In this document: positions 36,606 through 56,600 of the stretch, one piece after another
Layout: each line of letters begins with the position of its first letter
Position numbering within the stretch: the stretch's first letter is position 1
DNA from: Berberis thunbergii
Taxonomy: Eukaryota > Streptophyta > Magnoliopsida > Ranunculales > Berberidaceae
DNA: 64,000 bases
NCBI GenBank assembly: GCA_003290165.1
Contig: QNQO01005788.1
Coordinates: 166,859-230,858, forward strand
Reading direction: 5' to 3'
Notes under the pieces: generated by a model
Databases searched by the model: none
What the model saw: only the letters and a program-made list of their open reading frames with translations
Told to the model about the DNA's origin: nothing
Position numbers and translations under genes: made by a program

Positions 36606-37313
36606 TTAAACTCGACTTCGGTTACTACAAAAAGGTTGCTTATTAGAAAATTGATGAGGAATAAGTTTTCGATCCAGCGCCCACGACAGCAATTCGAAAC
36701 AGGCCTCTGACGACTCTGACTTATTTGTGTAATCCCTTCTTATTCTTTGTAATCCCTTCTGAAGCAGATCCACCACAACAACTGTAATCCTTAAGATATG
36801 ACTTGAAGAAAACTTGTTAAGTAGTATTTTATACTTGTACTTTCTAGAGCTTAGCTACTGAGTCTGTTCTACATTTTCATGATGTCGTGTTGGCCTCTTA
36901 GACGTGTAACTCGCATAGTAGATTATGAAGTTTTTGCACTTCAGATTCCCTAGAATGTCTTAATTCGCTTATTTGCAGGCTAGTCTGTCGGTCAGACTAG
37001 AAACAATCGTCATCAGCAGGAATTGACTAAACTTTGGTCGGGTTCAGGCATCATTGTACATGGTGGGACAATGATCCATGGCAAACCATCGTGATCAGGC
37101 TCAATAAGCTCTGACTAGACTCCCACTTTCTAAGTCATCGTCATCCACACTCGATGGACTAGGTGTAGAGAGGACCAAAAGCCATCGTCATCAGTCAGAA
37201 CTATCTAAGTTTTGGTCAAGTTTGACCATCATTGTCTATGGTGGGACAATGATCTCTGGCAAGCCATCATGATCAAGTTGCATTAGGTCTGACTAGACTC
37301 TAATTTTCTAAGC
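36606..37313 (+). repeat. 3' flank with 176-bp imperfect tandem repeat
   Basis: Follows the gag-like remnant. A unit running from ATCGTCATCAG through GGTGGGACAATGATC and CTGACTAGACTC to TTCTAAG is present in full at about 37008-37183 and partly at 37184-37313. The CACTA element begins exactly where the second unit stops at TTCTAAG, so the element interrupted this repeat. Confidence 0.6.
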
Positions 37314-37329
37314 CACTACACCAAAAATC

Positions 37330-37810
37330 CCCATTAGCAACGGTTTTAAACCGTGGTGGTAACCCATTGTCACGGCTAAGAGCGTGGGTTACAGAGGCGT
37401 CGCGAAATTCCTTTTCACGGCTATAAACCGTTTCTAAAATGTTTAGCAACGGTTTTATGTTTGAGGAGGTGTGGTAATTTTCAGCATTTAGCCACGGTTT
37501 TAAACCGTTGCAAGAACAATAGCAACGGTGTTTAGCCGTGGCCAAAGTAGCCACGGTTTTTAGCCGCGATAAGGTGTGGAAACTAGCAACGGTTTTAAAC
37601 CGTGGCTGACAAAGTAGCATCGGTTTTTAGCCGTGGCTAACCCTGGCCACGGTTTTAAGCCGTGGCTAAACATGGAGAAATAAGCCGTGGCAAACGTCAT
37701 AGCAACGGTTTTTAGCCGTGTCAAGTCATGGCCACGGTTTTAAACCGTGGCAACTGATGGAGAAATACCACGGTTTGCAGCAGTGGCAAGATGCGACCAC
37801 GGTTGTAAAC
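37330..37810. repeat. CACTA left subterminal repeats
   Basis: More than fifteen short palindromic units of the form (A/T)AGC(A/C)ACGGTTTTAAACCG(T)GGC in both orientations. They differ in spacing. Such arrays are the binding sites of the TNP1/TnpA-type protein in CACTA elements (family knowledge). Confidence 0.9.
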
Positions 37811-37829
37811 TGTCGCAGTTAAAACAAAA

Positions 37830-38368
37830 TTCAAAAAAAAAAAATCTGATTTGTTGCGAAAATAATATAATACAAAAAAAAAATTAATTTTTTTTTGCTG
37901 CTGCTGCAGAATTGGAACAATCCAATTTCAAACTGATAATGCAATCACAGAGAATACTGAAAGATGATATTGCAGTTTCAGCATTATCAAGCATTATCAA
38001 GAGAATTTACAGAAAGGGAAGACAAAGAATTCACAGGAAGGAAAGATTTATTTGATTGGAATGTAAAGGTTACAATGGTTTGATAGACTAGAATGTATTA
38101 GGCACAATTCGAGATTGCCAATCTCCTACACTTGTACAATGTGTTTACAAAAATGAATCAATGGTTTATGTTACAGACTCCCCTACTTATATTAGTTCCT
38201 AAAAGTTCCTAATGCCTTTATAATTCTCCATAAAGCACAAGACAACACTGCATTGATATAGCAACAATGCCACAACAGTTTTGTGTAACCATCCAGACTT
38301 CCAGACTTGCTAACAGACCTGCTAACCAACCATAATGTAAAATACAGCATGAGTATACCTGCAAGAAA
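37830..38368. other. CACTA interior between subterminal repeats and solo LTR
   Basis: About 540 bases of AT-rich sequence with no coding similarity recognised. With 42355-43000 it formed one continuous stretch before the solo LTR inserted. Confidence 0.4.
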
Positions 38369-38373
38369 TGCAT

Positions 38374-41300
38374 TGTCACGCCCCGATTTTCGAGAAAAAC
38401 GTAAATCCTAAAATCCACGTAGGATTATTCGTTTCCCCAAAACTCGGGACGTGAAATTCAATAACAACAGAAACATTTAGCAGCAATGAGAAAATATAGT
38501 TTAGAAAATAGAACAAACTAAAATTTATAATAAAACTCTAACATGAAAAACTGACGTCGCTAGCCCCACTAGCGAAACTCCCGTAACGCTGCTCAATAGT
38601 CTCTGAACCTGAAAGCTAATTGACTACATTCCCAAAGGAATGTACCCAAGAAGCAAGAGCTCACTTGGGTCAGCAATAAAGCTGGTGTGAGAAATCTTCA
38701 TTCCAAAAATCAATAAAATTGCACGTGATAAACATCAAGCAAAACACGAACAACAAACATCACACCAATAGGTAGTTCCTCAACGAGGCAAAGTGTGATG
38801 CAAGAAAAACACAGTCCACAGAATTTAGTTCCTCAACGAGGCAATCATATCATCATCCTAATATGTAAATATGCGTTTATCTGTACTTACCCTATAGGAG
38901 TTACTATGGCAAGTCGGACCTGCAGAAATATTAGTGGACTTGCCATCCTGCATAAAAAAGGATTAGAAACAATGTATCGTAATTTATTCTCTTTTATGAA
39001 TTAGGTTCATCTTTTTAACGGGATTGATCACTTAGACGATACCACACTCGCACCACCTCCGTGCCGACATACATGCCCGTATGCCTCTCTCATATAAGGA
39101 GACTACTCCGTCATTCATGCCCAAGTTGGGACATCACATACAGACATGCATCGCGGATACCCCTAACTATATGAGTACCAAAAAGCCACCCTTGGGCTAT
39201 CCAATGCGCATAAACTCACGTCACATTTTTGGACGGATAAATATCAAAGCCTATTTTAGGCATACAAACTCACCACATTTCCGCAAGACTAACCCGAAGA
39301 TTATTTTAGTTTCTCTAGTAAGAAATGGGTGCCCCAACTCCGCAAGACGACCCGCAGGTTATTTAGTTTCTCTAGTAAGAGAGGGGAAATCATAAACAAA
39401 AGAGATGTGGTAGTTCTAAGTGATCACAGCCCAAGTGTTTTATATTTTCAGAAGTCACTGTTTACTAATATCATTTATTTTTCCTAATTCAGAATTCTCC
39501 ACGATGACATTTTGTCATTCGTAAATTGATTCACAATCTATTCACCCACATTTTTGGGGAAACATAGCATATTCATTAATCATGTATGTAACAATATGGC
39601 AATCAAGCACTCCTTGATTCAAATATCCAAAATCTTTATAATGCATAAACAAGTCAACATGCATGATAATACCAATCTCCACATTAATCACAATGCATTA
39701 ATATTCACCAACCATTCACATCTCAAGCATCACTATTAACTTAGAATATGAAAAACATAGTTATGAGCTACTAACTGTAGTTAACCAAGCCAAACAAATC
39801 CATATCTAATAGTCTTTCTTAAACACTTGATTTCGGTGTGAGCTAACTTAGCTTACAGTGCATTAATAAGAAATACGACATTCATATACCCAAATGCTAG
39901 ACAAAATGTGGGATTGTCCACATCATAATCAAGTCCTACTAAGAAGTAATTGTACAATGGAAAACCAGCCACACTTAGTAGTAGCCATTAGAAGATCTAA
40001 CTTACCATGACCTTGCGACATGATGACAATGACCTACACTATAATATTGATCATAAATTAATAAAAATAGTAAAATAGAATTTTAGCTTCAAAAACGTGT
40101 AATCCTCCTCTCTGTCCCACTCCTATTCTTGTACTAAAATTACTTGTTCACAAGCAAAACTTACAAAAGAGTGACATGTCCTTGATTACGCAAGAACACT
40201 GCATTGTGACTATCGGTCAAAGTTTATCCAATGACTTACCAAAATTTATGATCATCGATAGATTCATCAAGTATTGACTCATGTCAAGGGCAACCCTTCA
40301 TAACCCATCACTAATACAAACACTCTATTCGATGTTGCACATTCCAAAACCCTAAATACCCATCACAGAATTCAAACACAAACATTGCAAAGAAACATGA
40401 ACAAAATGCACAAAGAAAACAAACCCATTCTCACAGGCAAAACCATTCTATTTTTGTAAAGGGGATATTATATTTTCAAGAAACAACATGAACTAGCCAC
40501 CCAATCAACCAATCAAACAATCCAACAACAGATTATCTAAAAATGTACTATTTAATATATACTCTACTCATCAAAGACAACAAGTGGAACAAGAAACAAG
40601 TAACACAGCATAGGCAAACTGATAGAAAAGAAGGACTCAAAGTAGAAGAGAAAGAAATGAAGAAACTCACAGTAAAAGAGGAAATGAAGAAAACTCACAG
40701 TAAAAGTAAAGGAGAGGAAGAAAACTCACCTTAAAATGAATCAGTAAACAGCCTGCACTCAGCCAGCCCAGCTAATGTAATTCCTCCATCAACAACTCTG
40801 GAACCATACAGAATTGAATGATTAAAAAGGGGAAAAGAGAACAAGTAATGGCCCACTCAATCAAGGAGCCCCTGGACTATCAACCCTAAGAGAACTTGCA
40901 CAGTTATGTAACCAGTTCGGACTCCCTACATTGTCCACACCGATGCCATGAATCCCCACTTCCATCCTTATAGGATCAACTAGCTAAAACATTATCAGTT
41001 TCTACTTCTAGGTGTCAAAAGATGTAGCATGGAATCCCCACACTAGCATAGCTTATTATACTATTGGTTTGCAAATGAACCCAACTAATCATATGCATGG
41101 ATATCAGAACAAAGGTTAATATAAAAGTATTAACGTATTGTAAACTGTGTGGAAATAACCTTGGAAACAATTTTAGGAACAATACCAAAGGTTAGAACTT
41201 AACATGGAAGTATGGCAATCTGCAATAATTAATGACCACCATAATGATCTTTCCTTGAGTAAAAGGGACCAATACAGAAACTAGTAAAAGAACATATTGT

Positions 41301-42349
41301 GACTAAATCAATAAACATGATGAACTCATATAAACATCTTGTATAAGAAAAGCTTACCCTTGAGCACAAATCCTTCCAGCCCAAGTGCATTATGACAACT
41401 TCACTATTACCCATGTCATCCTCAGTAGGGAGACCAACTGCTTTCCCATGTGTAATAGCATCCCTTCTGTCTTCGAATCTGCAATGTCATCATTGGCCGC
41501 ATCAAACAAAATGGAATGTTCATCTCAATCCCAATCTGTTCAAGAAACTCAAACCCATCATTTCCATCAGTTATATGCCCTGTGATGTAAACCTGGAATC
41601 AGTAGGTTTGACTAATTGGAAGACTAAAGCATCTCCTTCCACTGATTGACAGACACCACAAAGACTCATCGCACATACAACCATCTTCCTCACACACAAC
41701 CCGCCATCGCCATCGTACATCACTACCATCACACTTCCGCTGTCCACGATCCATCGACCTGCTCCCAGCACCCAATAGCGAGGTTCACCTCAGTTGATGA
41801 CATCTCTCTCAATGTCGATCGGCTCATCCAGGTCTATCAACTCACCAGATCGATTAAGTCTATCCCCGACTGTTATCTCTCTCAGGCGGTGTCGTACCAC
41901 TGGTCAGCCTCCCGTCCAGTTCGTCTCGACAACCTCAAACCAAGTCGATCGACTTTCCTCGCATAGGGCTCCATTTAAGATCAAATCACTAACACTCTCT
42001 GGCTGTGCGAATCTGTTTTTTTTTTTTGCAAAATCAAATGAGACGAGGGGGAAGATAAATGAGAAAAAAAAAGGCAGCTAGGCTGTGAAACCCGTGGCGG
42101 AGTTCGATTACATGAGTACTCGCTGGTGAATTGGGGAAAAAGGGAGGAGGCACAGTAAGGAAGAAGAAAAGGGTTTGAAAGAAGGGTTTGGTTTTATATT
42201 ATGGGTGGTTATCGCCCACTAAATTCGGAGGGCACCCCTCTAAACACACTAAATAAAACCTAAATTTCGAAATTCACATTCAATTAAATGTAACCTATTT
42301 TATAATTAAAATAAAATAAATTATCTTTATGAAAATTAGGGATGTTACA
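38374..42349. mobile_element. Solo LTR, about 4 kb, nested in the CACTA element
   Basis: Ends TGTCACGCCCC and GGATGTTACA with an exact 5-bp duplication TGCAT (38369-38373 and 42350-42354), as for LTR-retrotransposon insertion. TGT...ACA ends with an ACRCCCC-like start recall Ty3/gypsy Tekay/Del LTRs. No internal copy of the ends, PBS or coding domain was found, so the simplest reading is a solo LTR. A repeated TAGTTCCTCAACGAGGCAA motif (38771 and 38826) and GTTTCTCTAGTAAGA (39308 and 39367) occur inside. Frames in it (for example 39081-39395 and 41646-41966) are not genes. Confidence 0.65.
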
Positions 42350-43424
42350 TGCATCCAGCTCTTCAGCTAGCAATCAAACACATCACCCTTCAATCAGCTG
42401 TAAGATAATTTTAACCCACAAGCCACACCACACTACTTTTCAGAATTATATTTAGATACCTATAAAGGCTATTAGGAACCAGATGATCTAACTCAAATAC
42501 AAAATATAATTAGTCCACTACCACACTACTTTTCAATTCAAGAACAAATCAGAAAGCCATTGTTATTAATCATTCCGTAACTAAGAATATTGCTCAAACA
42601 AGAAGGGGATGAATTCCATCTTTGGGTTAATACTAGCTTATACAATCAACAACCATTATCAATTAACTAAATGTACATTTATGATTTAACTTCCCCCTTC
42701 AATAGTAAAGGTAGAATGTTGTCAGAAGGCAAACTGATCTTAACCCAGGCTGGTTGGCCGGTTGTTGCCATAGCCAATCATATTACACTTACAGTTCACA
42801 TGAGTCGTAGTTTATTAGTATATGATACTAAAAAGACAACCATGTACAACTTTAAATTCTCTTTTCATTCCTTTGTCACAAACAATCAAATTTCTGAGAA
42901 TATCTTAATACACATTGGGTGTCTGCATATAAATTTTAAGAAGTAAATTTTTTCAAAAATAAAATGGGAAGTAAGATTTGGAAATGACAAAGAACAACTT
43001 ACAAGTCTCTAAGAGTTTGATCCAAGGCTTTTTCATGGTTTCTCTGCTATAACAATTAGATCTTCTGCACCCAATTCACTTGAGAAGAAGTCTCTGTACT
43101 ATAGCTAATGTACTGCAGATCACCTGAATAGACCATAACCATAATAATAAAGTTAGCCATACACAAAAGAAACTAATGTCTTTTGAAATAAAAATCATCT
43201 AATTAAGAATTAATATGCTGATAACCATAGTAATAAAACATAAAAAACAATAACAAGTTTTAAGAACAACTCTCAGCCCTTTACTTGAAAACATGGCTAA
43301 AATTCCAACGAAAAATAGGGAGGAGAGAATGATCACAGTCCCACAAGACTTCACGAGGGAGACCCCAAGGAAGGGGATCTTAAAATGAGATTCAGAATAC
43401 CCGAACCTAAAATACAACAAAAAT

Positions 43425-44045
43425 CATTCCGTTCCAAAAACTGTACAGATATGTAAATCTTGGAAGACCACTTCTTGGTATCCACCACCTTCATCAAGAT
43501 CTGTGGATACAAGAAAGTTGAGTTTTTTTTCTAAACTAACTCGTTTACAGAGTAGAAAGAAAACTACCATATGTGTTTGCATGTATATATGAATGTGTAC
43601 GTATGTCTTGCATTGGTGTATACTAATACTATGCACATCTTTATGGATAAAACTGAAATAGAACCTAGTAATTGATCACATGGGCATAAACAATGGCAAA
43701 GCTTAGATGTGTGTATGTAAAGTTTATTTCAACTACAATTCATCATTAATAATCAAGCACGTACTTTATTATGACATCTTCTAACCCATAGCAATATGAT
43801 TCTAATGGAGGTGCATCTCTTTCAATGTTCATGATGGTGTTAAGAAAATATAATGAGTTACGAAAAGTGAAATTAGGATCACCATAGATGTCGATATTGG
43901 GTGCGCTCCCATATCTCGTAACAAACAAAAAGGGCAACCTCAATAGCATGACGTGCTACAGCCACAAGAGACTTTAGTATGTATATAGCCGACGCAATCC
44001 GGTTCAGGATTTGGATCATGCAATGCCACGCGCTGCCCTGAGTTT
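43425..44045 (-). pseudogene. Captured fragment: pyruvate dehydrogenase (acetyl-transferring) kinase
   Basis: Exon-like pieces of the mitochondrial kinase that phosphorylates PDH E1-alpha. Read on the minus strand with frame changes: ALHDPNPEPDCVGYIHTK (about 43975-44028), VAVARHA (about 43950), YGSAPNIDIYGDPNFTF (about 43868-43918), a piece like APPLESYCYGLEDVIIK, and the nucleotide-binding GHKL box DEGGG followed by IPRSGLPRFTYLYS (about 43438-43497). The catalytic box is separated by intron-like sequence, so genomic DNA was captured. Frameshifts occur within the exons (before IYGDP and after DEGGG). It is not functional. Possible further 3' traces (GDLQYIS near 43100) are weak. Confidence 0.85.
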
Positions 44046-44184
44046 GAAAAAAACTTTGAAGGTCAGCAATGAATCTGATATTTCTAACAAATAAAAAGCT
44101 AACTTTTAACATGGGCAAACAAAATAAAATTAGATGGAAAAGGAGTTACAATCAGCATACGAATCCCATTCTACATGTAATCTG

Positions 44185-44530
44185 TCGAGAAACTGGTGGA
44201 TTTTGGTCAATAATTGGCTTGTGATCAATAATAGATGATTTGGCAGCTGCAACTTTTGCCTTAGCGAAAGCAGCTCCGGTGCTGATTGTCCTAAAGCCCT
44301 GTGGAAATAGCATGGTTTTAAATTTTGGAACCAATTAATTCAATACAATAGAGATGTGTTTGGGTGCTTACAGTCCACCTATCACTAGATGACCTCCATA
44401 CCAAAGTAGAAGTGCGTAGCACAGAAAACAGTGAAGTACGTCGACACCAACCCCCCTTTGGCCAATCCAATCTTGTAACCAAGCTTTTGAGCTACTCGCA
44501 ATGCAGATGAATAAGTTTGCAAAGCTCTTG
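44185..44530 (-). pseudogene. Captured fragment: ABCB-type (P-glycoprotein) ABC transporter
   Basis: Two exon pieces from the first transmembrane domain of an ABCB1/ABCB19-like auxin-transporter-class protein. One has ALRVAQKLGYKIGLAKG, then after a one-base shift CYALLLWYGGHLV (about 44380-44515). A short GT-AG intron (about 44301-44371) separates it from the second, ALGQSAP then FAKAKVAAAK and IIDHKPIIDQNP (about 44195-44300). A retained intron and several frameshifts show genomic capture followed by decay. No nucleotide-binding domain is present, so no transporter can be made. Confidence 0.85.
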
Positions 44531-45306
44531 ATTCCCCAAACTAGGAAAACTGTCCGAATTTGAACTATATCTATACAATTCAGATTAAAATCAGTCATGT
44601 TAGCTGATTGCCTCCCATGCTATTGAATACAAACCAAGTTTTTATGAGGAGATTCTATCAGATGGAGCAGCATTACTGGCATACAATACCCCGACAAACT
44701 GGGGAAAAATCTTGCTACTTAGCGAAATGAAACTAAGACAGTGACTTAAAATCGCAAGATTGGTGTCGAGATGTAATTGAGTGAATAAAGTTTGAACAAA
44801 AAAAAAAGAATTTTAAAATCAGAGCCTGATCTTTTGCTAGACAATGATTTTCATAAATATTCAGAAGCGGTAAAATATTTGAAGATATTGAATCATTACA
44901 GTTATTATAACTTCGCAAGATAACAATTTAGATCTAGTTCATGCCAATTTCACTTTGTTTACTATATTAAGCAGAGTCAATTGACTGGGTAGTGCTCATT
45001 ATTTGTTTTTTTCAAGGTTGAGAACCAAATTCAGGAATGCAAAAACATTCTCACTTTACAGCATTCGACATAACTATGATTTTCATGGCTTCAATTCAAA
45101 CTTTCTTCAACAAAGAAATGCATACAAAATACAACCTCTCTGGGTAGGACTACACTAGTATGCCAACATAAATTGAACAGGTAAGTGTAAGCATATCAAA
45201 CCAAATTGTACTCCCATAAGATCACCTAGTGGATTCAAGGAATATGCAAGCACTGATTCACAGGAATTGTAGCGCACTGAAAATGGGAAAGAGCATCCAG
45301 AAATAC

Positions 45307-47490
45307 TCAAATCATGCCAGCGAGTGAGCAAGTAGAAATCATTGTTTCCGCGTCATAAAAACTTGACTCTTGTGACACGCTCGACCTCTTTGATTTTCCA
45401 GTTTTCGCAAGCAGCTTCAATATACTTAAAATGAATGTCGGGATCCTAACTGTACCAAGAAATGACCAGGAGAGAATCAAGAAAAAGGAAGTGAGTATAC
45501 TGGAAAAGGGGAGGGCAGTAGTTACTAAAAAAAATACCTGGAGCTCAAATACGACCAAGAAAAATATAAACTTCATAGGATTTGAATTGCTCAAAGAGTT
45601 TTATACATGACTCAACACCCATGCTGTAGAGTACTCTTTGAGCCTGCAAAAAAAACATTTCATTAGAGTTAAAAAGATAAAACTAAACAGGTCTATATTA
45701 TAAAGAAAGCAGGTAAGCGACAGATACCTGCACGATGATCTGTAAGTTAGTCATTCTCTCAAATTAACCAGCAAAAGGTCCTTCATACATTCCCAATGCC
45801 CACTCCTGGAAAGGTTTCCAAAGAACTCTACAAGTGACTGGACAACATATTTTAGAATAACATTACATGCACTACTCTCAAGCCAAAGTATGAGTATAAA
45901 CTTTACAAACTGGGGCTCAATGCATGAGTATTCACAATGACACGTTTAATATCCGATAACTCAGTGTAATGCTGCAGGGAGGCACACAAACAGAATAAAC
46001 ATCTTACACATAACAAAAGGTTTTACCAATACAAATGTAAATCAAATACCTGAAGAGCACGGATATAAAGACCAGCCTTTTACAGAGTTGTGCTATTCTA
46101 GGACGGTCATAGTGACTGAACATTCCATTGGCCAATATGGCATCAGCTACATTTGGAGTCACTAGATTGATCTCCAGGACCTGCATAGAAGGAAAATCAT
46201 GTGTTTAATGTTGACTTAGGTTGAATGAAAGAACATACACCATAATAAATTCATTGAAAAACTATATCAACTTTGTTTGAAGAAAAATGCTCTGGTAAAT
46301 CTGGCTTCAACACATCAACCTAAACAGAGTCCTGATAACTGGTGTTTTTAGCATTTACTTGATAAACATAGAAGCACAAGTCCATGAAATTTGAAATGAA
46401 CTAAGATTTGATGATTGTCCCAACACACCATGAATAATTGAAACACACTGTATCCTAGAATGTTGATCATGTTTATTTAAGATGGCTTAACAGCAAAATT
46501 TACATGCATCAACATTACAAAATACCTGGGGATCTGATCTGAGGATTGTTTGTAGTAGAAATAGGTAATCGGGTGTATACCCAACCTGCATTTAACCAAA
46601 TCAACAAGAATAACAAATTCCAGAAACAATGTCAACCAATTCCAAATTATCCTTAAACAAAATGCGAACTACAACTGAAGATCCTTAAACAAATTTCAAA
46701 AAGGTATGAAGACATACAGTTGGACCAGCAAGCAAGGATGTCCAGAATCCACAATTGCAGCACACCCACTCTGACAGAAACCTGCAACGACAAAAACTTT
46801 GATATTTTGAATAAACTCATTTAATTTCAACATAAAAATCAGAAAGCAAGGACCAAACTCTTTTATTCAGAATTCAATTATTATCCTTCACGGTTACATT
46901 CGACTAATTCTATTGTAATGTTTTTTTTTTTTTTTCCTATAATTTATTTTCTCAATAGAGAAAACTAAAATCAGCAAGAAACCAGTCAACTAGCAGAGTT
47001 TAGTGGATAAACTATTATCCAATGAATATAAAGTGTACGAAACTTCCATGTAATAATCAATACATACAATAATTACTGAAGAAAGATATAACACACTTAA
47101 ATGGGTTCAAGTAGAATGACCTGTTGAATAGTTCCCAATGAGAAAATCTCCCATTTCGATCTGGATTAAGAAAAAGGTGGGTAGAAGAGAAAGGAAACAT
47201 AAATTCCACCTCTACAAAATAAAATAAATGGAAAATTATGTTGCATAGGAAGCAGTGACCTCCAACCTGCCAGTATCCTTTTACGGTGACTGGAGTATAA
47301 GTGTGATGTTGTAACAGTGCCTACCTTTCTTGGTTTTCATTAGATTTAGAGGGTTAATGTGACAATCAAATACCTGAAATTTTGCAACAGTGTCAGGGGT
47401 ACGAAGGATTCCTTGAGGAGAATCAGCAGCAAGCTCAGCAGCTTCCTTATATTTGGTCTGGGAGAACAACTCCTGAAATCTTTGAACAAC
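45307..47490 (-). pseudogene. Captured fragment: clathrin heavy chain exons
   Basis: At least eight exon-like pieces in the correct order, covering roughly residues 380-790 of the 1,700-residue vesicle-coat protein. The first (47374-47490) is an intact 39-codon exon, VVQRFQELF... to TPDTVAKFQ, with good splice sites. Next are [20 protein letters not shown] (46526-46585, intact), LDVLKPDLPEH (about 46255-46315), [31 protein letters not shown] (46055-46182), YTELSDIKRVIVNTHA (about 45905-45972), a frameshifted VEFFGNLS..CMKDLLLVNL (about 45730-45840), CIKLFEQFKSYE (about 45577-45615) and [21 protein letters not shown] (about 45330-45445). Exons encoding about 100 residues are missing between the first two pieces, where an aspartic protease exon lies instead. 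No N-terminal propeller or C-terminal legs are present, so it is non-functional. Confidence 0.9.
46711..46781 (-). pseudogene. Captured exon: phytepsin-type aspartic protease
   Basis: After an AG acceptor the minus strand reads GFCQSGCAAIVDSG, and with one base missing, TSLLAGPTV. DSGTSLLAGPT with the preceding CxxGCAAI is the second active-site segment of plant aspartic proteases (phytepsin/cardosin). The single-base loss breaks it right after the catalytic DSG. It lies between clathrin exons 47374-47490 and 46526-46585 in the same orientation. Confidence 0.8.
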
Positions 47491-47639
47491 CTGAGACATA
47501 GAAATTTGTTGAAAATGTAACATAATAACAGCAAATCAAGCATATTTCCCAAATAGAATTTGATCAATTGTGTCTACTTCTTTTCAACCCCAAATGGCAC
47601 ACTCCTAAGCTAAAACTGTCGCATGTTACAATTATGTCA

Positions 47640-47870
47640 GCTCACAAACTACTGACCCGAATGGAAACTGGCAAGACAAAGAAGAGGAAACCAAAAAATA
47701 CATACCACATAACCACAACATCTAATACATTGTGGTCAAAACTCAGAAGTACAATTTGTGAGATTGAGGTCTTCAATGCCAGTTTTTTGGCTCTATCAAA
47801 ATCTGCTTCTATGGATAAAAATTCCAACGACCCTGCATCAAGAACCTACTTAATAAAAATTCCTATGCTC
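47640..47870 (-). pseudogene. Unidentified exon-like segment in the CACTA element
   Basis: A 60-residue open stretch (frame 47642-47827) with FLSIEADFDRAKKLALK and SQIVLLSFDHNVLDVVV, preceded upstream by VLDAGS in frame and a TAG acceptor-like site. It is more protein-like than surrounding sequence and has the same orientation as the known captured fragments. I do not recognise the parent gene. Confidence 0.35.
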
Positions 47871-48584
47871 TCACAAGTATATGCAATTGATGAATATTAA
47901 TCAATGCAACCTGAGATGTTGCAACAGTGGGAAGAAAATAAAAGCTTCTGTAAAATCGAAATATGTATCCGAAATATTCAATCTCCGAGTAAAATTAGAC
48001 ACAGCAAAACAAAACTTTCAATGATAACATGGTAGCACAAAAAAGAGTACATAAATTATAGGAAACATTTCAATCCAATCTCTAAAATCCTGTTGATTTG
48101 GTTAGAAAAACCACACTTTTTTCTTCACCCGTACAAAGCAACATTCACCCCCTATACATAAAATAAAAATATGAGGTTAAACAATTTTTGGATTTAACTG
48201 GGGCTAGCACATTGATAAAAGCAGAAAGACATTTCAACCAAAACAGAAAGCAGAGAGCTGCTTAAGATCATAAACAGCCAAAACATGTCCCTATTTCAAA
48301 TCAATCAAAAATGTTTATTACTATAAAATATCGATTCTTTCTTGAGGCCGTCGTAATACACCTTTGGTTTCTTATAGCTTGGGTTGAAGAGGCACCATGA
48401 CACAGGAACAGGGCTAGTCAAATATGCATAATGAAGTTTAACACCATCATGAAGCATGATGAGAGGAAGCTGATCAAGCATGAATATTCACAAAGTTCAA
48501 ACCTCGGCAATATGTAATTTTATTTACTTTGTTTTGACTCTCTGTTCAATTACCTACATTATAAGCTATATGAATCAAAATTGG

Positions 48585-48800
48585 TTAAGACCACGCTCTT
48601 CCGATAAATTGAAGGCCTATAGGCATCCCCATCTTGTCATATCCAACCTACAAAAAACACACAGAATTGTAACAGATAAGAACATGTCACTACGACTAAG
48701 CAAGGTCAGAGGCTCAAAAGGGTAATTGAGATCCTACTAGAACTGATATTGCCGGCAATCCAGAAAATTTCCTGCTGTCTGGCACCGTACAAGTGCAGCT
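48585..48800 (-). pseudogene. Captured fragment: amidase-signature enzyme (fatty acid amide hydrolase-like)
   Basis: Two exon pieces near the C-terminus of an amidase. One (about 48737-48798) reads GNFLG then, after a one-base loss, LPAISV. The second (about 48588-48648), after an AG acceptor, reads VGYDKMGMPIGLQFIGRAWS followed by a stop. These are the conserved segments downstream of the catalytic Ser-cisSer-Lys triad, which itself is absent. A further piece resembling the end of the protein (KKPKVYYDGLKKES, about 48345-48385) may belong to it. The intron between the pieces is retained. Confidence 0.8.
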
Positions 48801-48889
48801 GAAACAGCATAACAGAATTCACACAATCAGTTTTTTCTAATTTTCATTCACAATTAAAAGAACAGAAACCATCACCCTACAAGTTCCAT

Positions 48890-49835
48890 GCATACCTCCG
48901 TTTATGTAATCAAATTCATATTTAAGAGCTTCATCACTGATTTAAGTATGTCCAACATAGCTGATCTGCACTCAGAGTCTGTAATCATGGGGCCTAGCTG
49001 CCTGCTCGGATGTCATCACATAATTGGCCTCACCTCTTCTTCATGAAGTGCTCTGTAGGATCACAGTTTCATCATCAAAGATATGTAACAAAAGATAAAT
49101 GAACAACAAAGATAAAGAGTTTGAGATGATACCTAAAGAACAATACTTGAACTAGGTTAGATGGCCACCACATGTAAGGAGAATACCTCAACCACAGCTC
49201 AAAACCAGTGTGCTAACCACAGCACGTACAACAGACACGCTGAATCGCACTCTGTCTGCAATGCAGAGCACGCTAAAACTGCAGCGCACCCTGCCTGGGA
49301 CGCGCTCTGTGCTGCAGTGTTTCCTTGGAGACAATTGACTGCCATACCTGACAGTTAGATGAAATAAATACATAAATAATTAAAACTGCAAATGCAAACT
49401 TCACAAAAAGCAGTCAAGCAATGAGAGTCTTAAATATGTATATTGATCATAAATAAACATTAAAATGTAAATATAGTCAGAAAATTCACCATTAGACTCT
49501 TGGTTTTTGGGTGTTTTTGTGTAGAAAATAGAACTCATGTATAAAGAAAGACATCATAATCAATATCAAAAGCAATAGACATAAATATGAGAACAAAGCA
49601 AACTGTAGTATATGCACCATAACAATCAAAGATGAACTAAGGTCATACCAATTGTTGCGAATGAGAATTCAAATAGAAGAAACAATGTTTCAAATGGACT
49701 GAGGCAAGCAATAGTCATTTTGTTGTTAAGTCTATAGATACTGCACTTAAGCTGCAGCTAGTGTATTTTACTCAGCTCCTCTTTTGCTGCCACCATACAT
49801 TGCTTCCAACATAGTTGTAACTATCAATCATCAAG
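48890..49835. other. CACTA interior with no assigned gene
   Basis: Between the amidase fragment and the PTTA gene. It includes a relatively GC-rich stretch (49190-49350) with repeated CTGCAATGCAGAGC-like words and no recognisable protein, then AT-rich sequence. Frames 49161-49358 and 49188-49373 overlap on opposite strands and look spurious. Confidence 0.35.
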
Positions 49836-49839
49836 TTCC

Positions 49840-51470
49840 ACATGATTTTTACACCATACGAAGAAATCACCAACGTCCAAATCCCCCATCATGTCTCCTT
49901 TTGGATCACTTTTGTAAAGTTTCACCCCAGTCCTGAATTTGAAGCATAAGGAAAGTCTGATCTCTGTTGCAGGGTTCAATGATCCATGACAAGCGCAAGA
50001 GAGAGATGGATAGGATCTACAACCTCTATTGCTATCGCAATGACATTCTTTTCCCAATCACAAACTTTGTAAGTCCTTGACACTGAAGGAACAAGATTGC
50101 TTGGAGAAGGAAACCTCGCAACACCTTGAGACGATCATGGTAATGGAGATGGTGGTAATGGAGATGGAGGTAATGAATTTTCTGGTTGCCTTGTCGATTG
50201 TGCACGGGATGACGGTGTATCTTCAGTTCTTTGTGTCCCTCCTTGTATTCCCTCACTTGTTGAGGTCTCACATAAGGTCCACTTTCAAGTCTCTCTCGTA
50301 TCCATCTAACGTTTTCTTCCAATCTATCATATTTTTTGCTAAATTTTTTTACTTCCAATGTTTTTTCCAAAAGCAATGAACGAGCGGGAAGTGCAGCATC
50401 ATACTTCCTTTTAGAGACGATGGTTCCAACACAACAAGTACGTCCCCTCGCTTCTTGGCCAAACACTTGGCTTAGAGGATCATCATCAATAGTGAGGTCA
50501 GTGGTACCCTGGGTTGAAGATTCTTCTTGCAAGGCAATTTTTTTGTTTTAACTTGTTCCTTCAAAAGAATGAAAAAATAAAATAAATCAGGACACAAATA
50601 TATTCAAATAACTACAAAGTAAATTAAGAATTGTGTATAAAAGACATCATTAAGCACATACCATATATAGTTCAGAACCATGCGTAGGTTTTCCATCCTT
50701 TCCCGTGTGACAAGCAATCCATATGTCAGTGCGTGTGACTGGTTCCCCATCAGGATTCTTCTCAACCCATATACTTAAAGATTAGTCTCACCCTATATAG
50801 TTAAATGGTATATAATATTGTACTAGTAGCTAGAAACTCAATTACCATTTCATACTCTATTCTGCAGCACTCTTTTGGCCACCCCCTATACATACTTTGA
50901 AGCCTTTTTGTTTTTTGCATTTTGGGCTCTAATTGCCTTCGCTTCAGGGGTGCTCTCATAGTGAACAAACTCCTTCCAATCCTCCTCTCTTACACCATTT
51001 GGAACATGTTTCTCTTGTTCCTCAATGGTAGGATACTTATCCAAATAATTCTTCCTAAGATCTGCCTTGAACCTTCCATAATATTCAGGCATTTTCAAAT
51101 GCACACTCTTTTTCACATAATTTGGGATGTCGTATTCACACTGCAAATAAGCCATTGAGATATAAGTTGAAAATAAAATAAGACATTATGAAAATCAATG
51201 ATATAAAATCTCACCTTGAGGTCATTCCACACATCCTCTTTGTAGTTGTCAGTAACATGGTGCAACCCTTGAATTGATGGGCACGGGTTTCAACAAGCTT
51301 TCCAATGTTTTTATTGAAATTTCTAGCACCAGGTCCAACTGCTAAACCGTGGAGGTTGAACTGTATGGTCTGTTTAACTTCACTGTCATCATTTGTAGAT
51401 CTAGTGATATCAATGGGAGAGATTGCCGCGAGTACTATCCATTTCTATCAATGACATTATAGATATTAAC
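49840..51470 (-). pseudogene. PTTA / TNP1-like CACTA accessory protein gene, degenerate
   Basis: A 'plant transposase (Ptta/En/Spm family)' gene, the accessory DNA-binding protein of CACTA elements. On the minus strand: IQFNLHGLAVGPGARNF and GKLVETRAHQ (about 51285-51370), then a one-base shift and HHVTDNYKEDVWNDLK. Next is an exon with CEYDIPNYVKKSVHLKMPEY.. (50886-51140, ending KASKYV with a stop where related proteins continue), VEKNPDGEPVTRTDIWIACH then TGKDGKPTHGSELYMV (about 50660-50780), and a C-terminal coiled-coil exon (50032-50532: DDPLSQVFGQEARGR; LLEKTLEVKKFSKKYDRLEEN). It is split by GT-AG introns. At least one frameshift and one premature stop are visible. It probably once bound the subterminal repeats. 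Confidence 0.8.
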
Positions 51471-51474
51471 CATT

Positions 51475-53180
51475 ATCAAACAAAAAGAAATAAGAATCAA
51501 CTAATTTGTGGACCAACATACATATAAACATTTTGTTTTAAAATGCACATTACAAGTTAAAATTATCCATTAAAGCTTCCTTGTAACTTTTGGTGGATGA
51601 TATTACTAGTCATGTATTTGAACCCTCCAGAACAAATTATGAATCAGATTGATAAAAATCTTGTATCCATTAAAATAAAAAGAATCAAATGATATGCTTG
51701 TATTGAACTCAAACTTTGGCTCCCCACCTATGCCTTCACTATTTCTAAATGCTTACAAATGCATTGAAAATTTTAGTTGCTTTGTTGTTCTTAATAGATC
51801 CTTTGGAGTAACTAAAAGTTGCCCTAGTAAGACTTTGCCTTATAATGCCAAAATTTTATAATTTCTTATTAATATGATGACATAGAAAAATCTTCCATGT
51901 TTCCCAAAATACAAGATTGAATTGTTGAAAACAAAAATGTCACTATTATGTCTTCACCCCATTCCCCACCAATTTTTTATGTATGCTTCCCTCACACTCT
52001 TCTTCATTTTTGTATGGGTTTTGAATATCTTCACCCTCTGTTCTCTCTCATTTTTTACTTATTCAGTGAAATGTCAGGTTCTAACTTAGTAGGAATCTGT
52101 CCCTCCATGGTACTCCTTCAAAAATAAATATAAATAAGCAAAAAATATATGATATCTTGCAAGCAAAATAAATTAACCTAACATGCAACCTTATAAAATT
52201 ATACCCTCATTTTCAAAACCCTAAGTTTTTTGTGCAAACCCATTTAACATCATAAGATAACTTACTTCTCAAAAAGCACCTAAAATTGAACTAGTTAGTA
52301 TACATTGCCATAAAAAGAAATGGGTCAAGTTCATTTATCAACCAAAACTACATCAATTACATTCTTTTAAGGCATTCTTTTATGAATCTCATATCGATTG
52401 GAGATGATTTTAAGAGATGTAGTTGCAATAGACCATTTAGTATCACCAAACCCCATTAATAAGAGATAATGAGACTTTATTAAAGTTTGAAATCAGATGG
52501 AAAATACCATCCACGGATAGGCCAACATAACCAAACACATAAAAACTAAAAGAATCGCCTAATGCCATTACTAAGTCACCATTAACAATATCTTCAAAGA
52601 TCTTTTATCATTAGTTTGTTAAGCTCGGCGCAGTGCAAAACTAAGCAAGCTGTAGCACTGCAAAGTCTCAGCATGCCAATAACATTTTAGGACCAACCAG
52701 TTCTGGCATCACAAACTCCACAGAACAGCAAGGTCTTATTGTTTTAGTGGATCCTAAACAGACTGATATGGCCAACAGAGCTCCCAATTCATAACATCTG
52801 AATAGAAAGCCAAATATATTCTCTTAAAAGTTTGATTATCCGGTTCAATTCCATCACAATAAAACCTAGTTTTTCCATAAAGCTTTCAAATGAAACCCCA
52901 CTCAACCCAATTGTATACACTACTTTTAAACTCTATCATAAATCAACTTGTGCTATTTAGGCCAGCTTCATTATAAATGAGACATATAAACAATTTTATT
53001 TTTTGGCATTTTTGATAAGAATAAGAATATTGCCAAAAGGAGATTGATTCCACCTTTTAAGTTTCATGCTAGTTAGGTCAGACAAAATAAAAAAACTCTA
53101 CATTCAGGAACCCTAATTTCATCAAAAATAAAAGAGAATAAGTACCTGTACGAGAGAATGGTTGCAGTGGCTGATCGATT
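51475..53180. other. CACTA 5' region, no gene recognised
   Basis: About 1.7 kb upstream of the PTTA gene on the minus strand, AT-rich, presumably first intron or leader. Nothing coding was recognised. Confidence 0.4.
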
Positions 53181-53189
53181 TTGAAGACG

Positions 53190-53400
53190 CCGAGTACTAA
53201 GGAGGGAAGACCAGGAAGGAGGGGAGAGGGAAGTCGAGGGAGGGGAGGAGGGAAGGAGAAGGAGCAGGGAAGTCGAGTGGAGTAGAGTCAAGGAGAGAGC
53301 AGGGAAGGAGACGATGTCGATGTCGAGTGGAGGGAGCAGATTTGTGGAGGGGAGGGAAGGTTTGTCGATGGAAGTCGAGTGGAGGAAAGGTCGAGCGCCA
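53190..53400 (+). repeat. Polypurine tract, GGA/GGGAAG-rich
   Basis: Some 210 bases almost free of C and low in T on the + strand, made of GGAGGGAAGG-type words and repeated GAAGTCGAGTGGAG or GATGTCGAGTGGAG units. On the minus strand this is a CT-rich leader directly inside the CACTA right subterminal repeats, placed like a 5' UTR or promoter of the element's gene. Confidence 0.7.
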
Positions 53401-53429
53401 AAATAGCCCGCCCAATTTTTTTTTCAGTT

Positions 53430-53670
53430 TTTCATGTAGCCACGGTTTTGAGCCGTTGCTAAATTTTTTTTTGCAACGGTTTTGAGCCGTTGCTAGACCT
53501 AGCCACGGTTTAGAACCGTTGCTAAAAAAATTTGTTGCAAGATTTTGAGCCGTTGCTAAATACCCATGGTTTTGAGCCGTTGCTACTAATAGCCACGATT
53601 TTTAGCCGTGCCAAATATACCAACGATTTTAGCCGTGGCCAAGTTTTTTTACCTACGATTTTAAGCTACC
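53430..53670. repeat. CACTA right subterminal repeats
   Basis: About eight units of the GCAACGGTTTTGAGCCGTTGC / AGCCACGGTTT type, more diverged than at the left end. They mark the other side of the element and end near the decayed terminus at about 53672-53686. Confidence 0.85.
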
Positions 53671-53689
53671 ATTTTTCAGTTAGGCCGAA

Positions 53690-56600
53690 ATTGTAAAAGA
53701 GCAAGGATATTAACACATAACATTTCTCTTAACTTTGATCTTGATGCAAACATGCAATCAGTTACAATTCTCACCCATACAGTCTTTCAGATATTCAATT
53801 TTGTTCAACAATGATGTTAATACTGGGCAAAGAGAAAAACTGTAAAACGATAAATTATGAACAAAACAAATTCTAGCTAGAAACTTCAACAATTCTAGAG
53901 AGTCTTCAACCTTATCAGGCTAACAAAAAATCATTGAAACCAAAGGAAAATTTCACTCATAAAGATTATTAAAAATATTAATAATAAAAAAGGTTGATAT
54001 TGATGATATTTGAAACAATATTCATTTGAGCAATTATCAACTTTCGAAATTCCATGATAATCAAATGATTGTTAGGTGGAAGCTATCACTCCAATTATAA
54101 AACAATTATAAAGATTCTTCACAATATTAAGCCAAACAAAGTTTACTAAATAAAAAAATCTTGATTATAGTAAGAAAATCATCTTTTATAACTCCCACCA
54201 CCTCCTTGTCTATAATGATCCACTCAGTTGCAAATCATAAATCCACCATGTCCACCACAACAAAAAAAAACTCACATCTTGATCTTCCCATTCCTTGCAC
54301 AAGGATATGTCACCCTTCTTAACCTTGCCCAACCATCCTTCCATAATCATCACCGTAGTAGTCACCCCTAAAAACTCCCTATTCTCAACCTCTCAATCTA
54401 TACCCTGAATCCATCCAGACCTTAATCCTACCATTCCCCACTCACTCCTGTATACCCCTGGAGTTGAAAATGTCACTATGCACGTTTGGGTGAATTCCAC
54501 CTCCTCTCATCAACTGGTTTGACCCCCAATTGCCATTTTGTGTGATTTTTTCTTTGGTTGGACCCAAAACCTTGCAGTCCAGCTTGGAATCTCTTGAATC
54601 GTCTTCTCCCCTTCTGGAGCAATGGCCTTTCAAGTTCTTCACTCTTTGTTTCGTTCTTGCCCAAACAGACCAGGAGATTCCCTTCGCAAAATCCCGATTC
54701 CAAAAAGTATCCAATAAGTGGTAAATCTCCCCGTGTACCACTCATTTAAACAAGACAATCCCGACTCAGAGTTTCTCAGACATGGTTTCCTTGCCAACTT
54801 AGCTAGTTGGGGAATGTCATGATTGTTCTGTTGTCTATGCTTGCTTTAGTGGTCAGATAGTACTGAATAACAAGTAAATTGAAGAGCTAGCGACCGGGTT
54901 GGAGCAAAGTGAGACGCGGTTCATTTGGTGGTGAAAGAGCGATGGTGAAGTATGCGTTGGGGTTGTATGGTAAGGTTCCTGATGAATTTGAGGAACAAAT
55001 GAATGGGAAAGGGTGTTGTGATTAAGGAAATGGCACCATAAGTTCTGATATAGGGACAAGAGCTCTCTTGTGTGTTCATGACCAGTGGTGGAACTCAATA
55101 TTCGAGCTGTTGTGGTGGGTACCCATGCCATGAGGCCAATGACAGCCTGACCAATTCCTGAATGCAACCTTGTTGGTGGACCAATAGGAGTTGGTCTCCC
55201 CAAAAGATTCTTAATTCCATTCCCCAACAAAGTCAACAAACGTCACACCTTGACAAGATTCCAAAAGGGCCCTTGAACAGTTGGAGAAATAACATTCTTC
55301 CAAGACAAGCACACCTCCGGATTCAACCCTCCATTATCGTCCTTGCTACTCAAAGGCAACTTCATCAAAACAAAGCAAGCAATAGAGTAGCTTCTCTCCC
55401 ATCCTATGTAGTCAAAGGTGTAGCCTAGGCACACTAGACACTTCAAATTTTCCCATGCTAGCATTGCTAGGGTGACAACTTAAAGGTTGTATCAAACACA
55501 AGATAGACAACCGCCCTGAACCACAGTTTGGCACATGCCGGTCATGTTGAATTTTTTAATGGTCCAAAGTCCATACTTATCAGTATCTTATGAATAAGTA
55601 TGATGTGAAACATGATTGTATCGTCTCTAAGCCTCGTAATACTGCACATGATATCTTACGATATAGGATGTCCGTCCTGTACAAGGATGTGATGAATAGA
55701 GGATGATAACCAATTGTTTGCTAACATGTTGTTACACAAGTCATATATCAATGGAAGTGTTTTAGGACCTCTTTGCTTGAATAAGTCTTATTTATGTATT
55801 TTATATGCTTAATATAATATTATTTTATATCAATATATTAACTTTTGCACCACATCTTACGATACACGATATGTTATCGTACATGTATCTTAAATTTAGG
55901 TTTCCAATATACGATACAATAAATGTTTTGATAACTATGTCCAAGTCATCCGACTTGCATGTTTGTTTACTAAGTCTACCCACACAAAACAAAGCCACAT
56001 CAATACAAGCCCTAACTTGCAAAAATGTGATTGCAAAACTCACTAGATTGGTGTTCTTCGATTGTGCCTGCTTTTTGGAGTCTACCAGCCCTATCACACC
56101 CTCACTTCTTCGATTTCGGATTTGGGGTTTTGATTTGGGTAAGTTTCTCAACTCTCTGTCTCTTCTCCATCACTTCTTCATCTTGTTATTAAGAACCCTA
56201 AAAAATATCTAATGAAAAACTTACCTAGGGTGGCTAAGCAAGCATAGGTGCCATGGTGGTTCAGTGATGGGTTTTTTCCTTTTAGGATTAGGTTGTCACC
56301 TGACCTTCCCTATCGTCCGAGATAACATAGCTCCAATTACAACAAGTTTCTTCAAGGATGATATCCCATCATCCACCTTAGTACCAAACTCTGCTACCAC
56401 CCTTTTTCTCTTTGAGGCGTGAATTTGCTAGATAAAGAACAAATGTTCCTCCACAGAATCGAGCCAAAAAAATTTCCTAAGTCAATTAGGAAGCGACCCA
56501 CCTTGTTATAACTGGTACTTTGCCACCACAAAATTTTCTCCATAGAGTATCTGATGAAAACAATAAAATAAATTAAACTTAAAATAAAAGGAATAAAACA

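What the first reader, a model, noticed from the sequence alone, without database searches (positions are those of the whole stretch)
37314..53686. Pack-CACTA element carrying fragments of at least five unrelated host genes in one orientation
A CACTA terminus and matching subterminal repeat arrays bracket a PTTA gene plus pieces of an FAAH-like amidase, clathrin heavy chain, an aspartic protease, an ABCB transporter and mitochondrial PDH kinase. All are on the minus strand, the same as PTTA, and at least the amidase, clathrin and ABCB fragments retain introns. Read-through from the element's own promoter would make chimeric transcripts antisense to none but homologous to all five parent genes, giving possible siRNA cross-talk. 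The motif matches are direct; capture and any regulatory effect are inferred.
Basis: partly seen in the sequence, partly recalled or inferred. Interest (0 to 1): 0.87.

Follow-up and report, generated by a model that had tools for sequence, protein, structure and literature searches.

The report
Plant transposon carrying five gene fragments
A non-autonomous plant CACTA transposon picked up intron-containing pieces of five unrelated genes, all pointing the same way, and spread them to dozens of places in its genome; this is a well-documented example of a known phenomenon (Pack-CACTA), and this particular copy has lost its right end.

Summary
A complete relative in the same genome (C1131, 12,813 bp, 13-bp terminal repeats, TAG target duplication, inside a Dof-gene exon) is collinear with window 37314-53666, so both subterminal arrays belong to one element. 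Corrections: (1) 38374-42349 is a separate nested insertion (LTR-like ends, TSD TGCAT); (2) the last 100 bp with the right terminal repeat are gone, so the copy ends at 53666 and is probably immobile; (3) many frameshifts here look like deletion errors near a contig end, since the allelic contig lacks most of them. The five gene identities stand (FAAH-type amidase, clathrin heavy chain, phytepsin-type protease, ABCB1, PDH/BCKDH-type kinase), all on the minus strand with PTTA. For four of five, intron-containing loci elsewhere differ from sister copies by 1.7-4.4% of aligned bases (gaps not counted). The ABCB::PDK fusion, at a 4-bp microhomology, occurs at 88 places (haplotypes counted twice; reversed control 0): fusion preceded amplification. 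Copies differ by 2.5% on average, and changes in two captured exons are not skewed to synonymous sites: the cargo drifts neutrally. Read-through RNA and siRNA effects were not testable. Closest precedent: soybean Tgm-Express1 (five fragments, introns). New member of a known kind.

The parts
37314..53666 (-). Non-autonomous Pack-CACTA element, copy truncated at its right end (12.4 kb without the nested insertion); PTTA and all recognised cargo on the minus strand
   Evidence: collinear with the complete copy C1131:119001-131813; ends
37314..37326 (+). left terminal inverted repeat CACTACACCAAAA (13 bp, as defined on C1131)
37338..37795 (.). left subterminal repeat array (units of the type AGCAACGGTTTTAAACCGTGGCTA); limits approximate
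38374..42349 (.). nested insertion, TG...CA ends, TSD TGCAT (38369-38373 / 42350-42354); solo-LTR-like; not part of the CACTA element
   Evidence: absent from L012, L011, L019 and C1131, present in the allele C89; right part belongs to a repeat family (1844 first-look candidates, 40 scored; full-length match outside the window and C89 only on C976 and C9519)
43440..44203 (-). mitochondrial dehydrogenase kinase (PDK-type) fragment, two pieces meeting at 43824/43825, where gene-like loci have further sequence
44200..44599 (-). ABCB1-type ABC transporter fragment (TMD1 exons and intron); joined to PDK at 44200-44203 through ATTT microhomology
45347..46639 (-). clathrin heavy chain fragment, two pieces (45347-46316 and 46317-46639) with introns; 1.1 kb of the gene is absent between them
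   Evidence: gene locus C1174, L064
46640..47304 (-). phytepsin-type aspartic protease exon with flanking introns, lying between the clathrin pieces
   Evidence: (locus C2553, L082)
47305..47506 (-). clathrin heavy chain link exon (Clathrin_H_link)
48590..48800 (-). FAAH-type amidase, two exon remnants around an intron; limits approximate
   Evidence: no parent locus sought
50032..51444 (-). PTTA (Transposase_24) gene remnant
53437..53666 (.). right subterminal repeat array; the following 100 bp with the right TIR are missing

Best explanation
It is a right-end-truncated copy of a recently amplified Pack-CACTA family. Shown: elements with CACTA ends and a PTTA remnant hold DNA pieces (exons plus introns) of clathrin heavy chain, an aspartic protease, ABCB1, a PDK-type kinase and, by protein similarity, an FAAH-type amidase, all in PTTA orientation; one fusion lies at a shared ATTT microhomology and is common to dozens of copies; two captured exons tested show no coding constraint among copies. 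Inferred: because no transposase was found in the 12.8-kb complete copy, it moves in trans using transposases of related CACTA elements; the pieces were acquired by tandem-insertion or aberrant-excision capture and trimmed by internal deletion; the window copy can no longer move; if transcribed from the PTTA side, it would give sense chimeric RNA.
For: Complete copy with 13-bp TIR and TSD TAG, empty site restoring a Dof exon. 30 left-end loci fall into 22 flank groups, 8 of them pairs that look allelic, so at least 22 sites. Of 40 scored left ends (window and allele included), 15 have the full ABCB/PDK row, 16 a clathrin row and 12 both on the same contig. The ABCB::PDK joint is present in 20 of 20 loci fetched with a query spanning it (18 besides the window and its allele; three with a point difference or 1-bp gap beside it) and at 88 places genome-wide (58 exact, 30 with one mismatch; reversed control 0). 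Gene-like loci with introns, mismatches per aligned base: CHC 54/1512, AspP 9/542, PDK C249 34/779 (all against C1131), ABCB C1309 9/422 (against C277). No ORF over 165 aa in C1131; 7809 first-look Transposase_21 places in the genome, 150 scored, all above cut-off, some in open frames over 750 aa. Synonymous variants 9 of 39 (expected 0.22) and 6 of 32 (expected 0.25) in 19 copies.
Against: The window copy has one terminus only, so its own TSD cannot be checked. The amidase parent was not sought. Whether C249, C1309 and C2553 are functional genes or other gene-bearing repeats is not settled: clathrin, PDK and ABCB exons are amplified elsewhere too, and the C2553 exons downstream match a typed phytepsin poorly (45-56%, one stop). 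Counting gaps, C1309 is only 87% identical to C277 and 83% to the window over 470 columns. Only 14 of the 30 C1131 frames of 75 aa or more were put to Pfam. Which transposase mobilises the family is not shown. Cargo is not constant: in the 2.4 kb read, C57 keeps a longer clathrin piece and lacks window 46.65-51.50 kb (AspP, link exon, amidase, PTTA).
Confidence: 0.94

Rival explanations
1. The fragments are a decayed host gene cluster over which CACTA-like repeats happen to lie.
For: All fragments share one strand; C139/C6211 also hold ABCB and PDK side by side.
Against: Clathrin, AspP, PDK and ABCB match separate contigs; the block recurs at many sites between the same ends with different flanks; the C139 ABCB piece is itself broken.
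Confidence: 0.02
2. The two subterminal arrays belong to two different elements and the block between them is composite only in this window.
For: A 4-kb foreign insertion lies inside and the right terminus is missing.
Against: C1131 carries the same order from left end to right array between intact ends with a TSD.
Confidence: 0.02
3. The element is a functional chimeric gene or regulator: transcripts from the PTTA side splice the captured exons into proteins, or feed siRNA against the five parents.
For: All recognised cargo is sense to PTTA; Tgm-Express1 cargo is spliced into transcripts (PMC1947982, abstract and passages); captured sequences of other element types can act as siRNA reservoirs in maize (PMC13317346, passages).
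Against: No synonymous excess among copies; stops in 7 of 19 ABCB exon copies, though in 0 of 19 PDK exon copies; the ABCB and PDK matches lie in different frames across the fusion in C277 (my reading of coordinates); no RNA data.
Confidence: 0.08

Closest known systems
Tgm-Express1 (soybean CACTA element, wp allele; PMC1947982, abstract and passages)
   Same: Non-autonomous CACTA element with exonic and intronic pieces of five unrelated host genes.
   Different: Tgm-Express1 is 5.7 kb in an F3H intron and its cargo is shown to be spliced; here 12.8 kb, a PTTA remnant is kept, one fusion joint is present at 88 places, and no transcript data exist.
Pack-CACTA / Pack-TYPE elements (PMC8903248, passages; Catoni et al. 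2019 not held, known only through citations in PMC8903248 and PMC13317346)
   Same: CACTA ends, no transposase, host coding DNA inside, multi-locus cargo (reported as greatest in maize Pack-CACTAs).
   Different: A passage there says most CACTA Pack-TYPE elements in the two species surveyed are low copy; this family has many copies sharing one fused cargo.
CACTA-captured genes on wheat chromosome 3B (PMC4290129, passages including the abstract's)
   Same: CACTA elements capturing genes and fragments and multiplying some of them, with exon shuffling.
   Different: There 13% of captured genes were reported expressed with dN/dS below 0.4; here the two exons tested show no coding constraint.
Grapevine CACTA transduplications (Cactavine-5, PMC2528002, passages)
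   Same: Gene piece carried by copies of a CACTA family.
   Different: Single gene, opposite orientation (antisense) there; five genes, all sense here.

Membership tests
CACTA superfamily | CACTA-type terminal inverted repeats | tested here: met
   Left end in the window; both ends, 13 bp perfect, in C1131. Right end absent in the window copy.
CACTA superfamily | 3-bp target site duplication | tested here: met
   TAG/TAG in C1131, the one copy where both flanks were read; empty site restores an open Dof domain. Not testable for the window copy.
CACTA superfamily | subterminal repeat arrays at both ends | tested here: met
   The only 500-bp bins with three or more motif hits are those of 37001-38000 and 53001-54000 (31 of 45 hits in the 64-kb window).
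Pack-CACTA | host gene sequence inside the element, with source genes elsewhere | tested here: met
   Intron-level matches for 4 of 5 genes; the amidase by protein only.
Pack-CACTA | no functional transposase, mobilised in trans | tested here: inconclusive
   Longest ORF 165 aa; no DDE match among the 14 of 30 frames scanned. Mobilisation in trans not shown; candidate transposases exist.
Pack-CACTA | multiple copies with different flanks | tested here: met
   22 flank groups among 30 left-end loci.
Tgm-Express type chimeric transcript | captured exons spliced into RNA | not testable with these tools
   No RNA data.
Host gene cluster | genes adjacent at their native loci | tested here: not met
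   Best loci on C1174, C2553, C249/C71, C1309; C139/C6211 show ABCB and PDK together, with a broken ABCB in C139. Relatives not held.
LTR retrotransposon (nested insertion 38374-42349) | TG..CA ends and 5-bp TSD | tested here: met
   TGCAT TSD; internal domain and second LTR not examined.

The most novel reading that the evidence does not exclude
The window's element is one trimmed descendant of a wider phenomenon: in this genome large, intron-bearing parts of a few conserved genes (clathrin heavy chain at more than 100 listed places, a PDK-type kinase at more than 60, ABCB1 at dozens) have been captured and multiplied by several repeat families. Elements repeatedly take large gene segments, then whittle them down by microhomology deletions while keeping the sense orientation, leaving a genome-wide homologous load on essential genes that silencing must tolerate.
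Probability: 0.3. Interest if true: 0.65.

Novelty: new member of a known kind. Interest (0 to 1): 0.43.

Why it matters
It gives a multi-copy example of gene-fragment capture by CACTA elements in which the order of events can be read: one shared fusion joint in dozens of copies puts the fusion before the burst, and intron-bearing source-like loci give capture divergences. Since the genes include clathrin heavy chain, it is a natural case for asking how a plant silences dozens of homologous sense copies without silencing an essential gene. It also warns that transposon-borne exons can be mistaken for gene copies in annotation.

Tried and rejected
Single short window translations gave weak or no Pfam hits for PDK, ABCB, AspP and amidase; sister copies C277 and C139 and the PDB sequence search settled them. 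A possible sixth fragment (GUCT-like, E 0.011, below cut-off) was not supported by PDB sequences and is left out of the parts. Aspartic-protease loci C1478 and C1036 match the element only over 58-60 bases at 75-76% (plus about 20 bases), so they are not the source; the stretches fetched from C1483 and C773 did not show the exon, so those two stay untested; C2553 matches over 552 columns at 96.6%. Clathrin paralogs C846 and C491 (70-83%) and C789 (83-90%; 137/1308 mismatches) and ABCB loci C191 and C197 (76-83%) are more distant than C1174 and C1309. Rfam: no match at gathering score in 36000-55000. A protein search with the C1131 clathrin piece found 139 proteins at E up to 1e-5 (best 120 listed), nearly all with the clathrin domain, uninformative on origin. 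A paper search on clathrin with CACTA gene capture (22 papers with 3 of 4 terms, 15 listed) listed none holding the clathrin term.

Full report
What was checked. The window lies at the end of contig C5773 (bases 166859-230858 of 230858) of an unnamed 2.24-Gb genome; that it is a plant is my reading of its genes and repeats. A genome search with the left end gave 40 scored places out of 5555 first-look candidates. Apart from the window and contig C89, all 38 start within three bases of 37314, where CACTACACC begins. The 30 fetched left-end loci fall into 22 flank groups, 8 of them pairs with the same flank, as expected of an assembly that holds both haplotypes. The window's own partner is C89, collinear over window 31978-58630 at about 97.6% apart from a small break at 53437-53580.

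One element. The copy on C1131 (pieces L075, L059, L076, L003) is complete: 119001-131813, 12,813 bp, 13-bp perfect terminal repeats, TAG on both sides. Joining its flanks restores an open reading frame with a Dof zinc finger (PF02701, E 3.9e-32), so it is an insertion in a coding exon. C1131 aligns to the window from 37314 to 53666 in order. The only large interruption is 38374-42349, flanked by TGCAT twice, starting TGTCACG and ending GTTACA; C277, C143 and one C782 copy lack it too. After 53666 the window and C89 lack the final 100 bp with the right terminal repeat.

Cargo. On the minus strand, from the right end: PTTA (PF03004 at 33.3 bits, cut-off 28.7, two window ORFs joined by me); FAAH-type amidase; clathrin link exon; phytepsin-type protease exon; clathrin middle exons; ABCB1 TMD1; PDK-type kinase (whose five hits are branched-chain dehydrogenase kinases; the typed plant PDK matched too). 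Several of these queries were taken from sister copies or mixed from copies. Five pieces all in the PTTA direction would occur by chance once in 32 if orientation were random; that is my arithmetic and weak evidence of a rule.

Capture. A clathrin gene locus on C1174 with open exons matches the complete copy over three separated pieces including introns (54 mismatches in 1512 aligned bases). The protease locus on C2553 matches over an intron-exon-intron stretch (96.6% over 552 columns; 9/542 mismatches). PDK: C249 34/779, C71 63/774 against C1131. ABCB: C1309 9/422 against copy C277, but 87% over 470 columns once gaps count. In 20 of 20 loci the ABCB and PDK pieces meet at the same joint, where both gene sequences share ATTT; these loci were fetched with a query that spans the joint, so the sample is not neutral. 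The joint, searched as a 34-base pattern with up to three mismatches, occurs at 88 places (58 exact, 30 with one mismatch) and the backwards-read control at none; distinct sites are fewer because haplotypes are counted twice. C139 holds a longer ABCB and PDK in the same order, with 3.6 kb where the joint lies in other copies. C57 holds a longer uninterrupted clathrin piece and, in the 2.4 kb read, passes within 80 bp from it to sequence matching window 51503 onward. The simplest reading is capture of larger segments followed by internal deletions; the order of events for the protease segment is not resolved.

Spread. Of 40 scored left ends (window and allele included), 15 have the full ABCB/PDK row, 16 a clathrin row and 12 both on the same contig (from the printed rows; these lists are lower bounds because only 40 candidates are scored). 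19 copies (window excluded, some allelic pairs included) differ by 2.5% on average (0 to 3.6%), with short inner branches in an unrooted FastTree tree in which C139 falls among the copies. With a recalled rate near 7e-9 per site and year this would be about two million years; that is an assumption, not a result. In 19 copies 9 of 39 variants in the PDK exon and 6 of 32 in the ABCB exon are synonymous, against 0.22 and 0.25 expected; 0 and 7 copies have stops and 5 and 5 have gaps. Over these two exons the cargo behaved as a neutral passenger.

How it works. C1131 has no open frame above 165 aa and no DDE transposase match among the 14 of its 30 frames of at least 75 aa that were put to Pfam. 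The genome has 7809 first-look places for the CACTA transposase domain; the 150 scored are all above cut-off, some in frames of 750-860 aa. Trans-mobilisation by one of these is the likely mechanism and is inferred. The window copy lacks one terminus and is probably fixed in place.

Quality warning. Against C1131 the window shows 166 deletion events, C89 only 21, while window and C89 differ at 95 of 16096 aligned bases; the left flank is clean (6 deletion events in 5.3 kb), the right flank is not (60 in 4.9 kb). The deletions look like assembly errors toward the contig end, so frameshifts in this window should not be read as biology.

Known or new. Tgm-Express1 already shows five unrelated gene fragments with introns in a CACTA element, with spliced chimeric RNAs (PMC1947982: abstract and passages). 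Pack-CACTA is an established class (PMC8903248: passages), and CACTA capture and multiplication of genes is known in wheat (PMC4290129: passages) and grapevine (PMC2528002: passages). The 2026 review (PMC13317346: passages) describes tandem-insertion capture and siRNA reservoirs. This is a new, well-resolved member of a known kind. In the five paper searches no listed title or abstract start names such a family; unlisted papers, supplements and subscription journals were not seen.

Noticed in passing
G000 contigs, e.g. C534:419235-432371, C42:1740670/1745121, C420, C236, C276: Clathrin heavy chain 5' exons (aa 13-85, 136 of 148 matches; aa about 415-482, more than 100 rows, some in the window's own family) occur widely, mostly in open frames, often about 3.6 or 4.5 kb apart on one contig; C534 has six copies about 2585 bp apart. 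Haplotypes are counted twice.
   Followed up: partly
G000 contigs: The PDK N-terminal exon (more than 60 rows) and ABCB1 TMD1 exons (dozens) are also repeated, some with several copies within 30 kb (C1171) or in facing pairs (C267, C394, C7700).
   Followed up: no
window 41380-41600, minus strand: The nested LTR-like insertion holds a piece resembling a type-B response regulator receiver (ARR1, E 8e-4, frames joined by me); sequence from that part recurs in other copies of the repeat.
   Followed up: partly
C9519, C382, C5801, C92, C7518, C2172, C6588: Matches to the nested insertion come in direct pairs 3.9-4.7 kb apart, as if long LTRs were separated by a very short internal part or arrayed in tandem.
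   Followed up: no
C1131:120074-120181, minus strand; window 42350-42450: Possible sixth captured exon, GUCT-like (DEAD-box helicase), Pfam E 0.011 below cut-off, no PDB support.
   Followed up: partly
L002, L004 (C6121, C127): Deletion derivative of the family: in L002 window position 44389 is joined to 52545, right terminus intact; L002 and L004 share the same right flank.
   Followed up: partly
C1131:119001-131813: The complete copy interrupts a Dof-domain exon, so at least one allele of a Dof gene is broken.
   Followed up: yes
window 37000-37313 and right flank of L002/L004: By eye, both insertion sites seem to lie in similar short repeats with many CATC/GATGA steps; possible target preference.
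   Followed up: no
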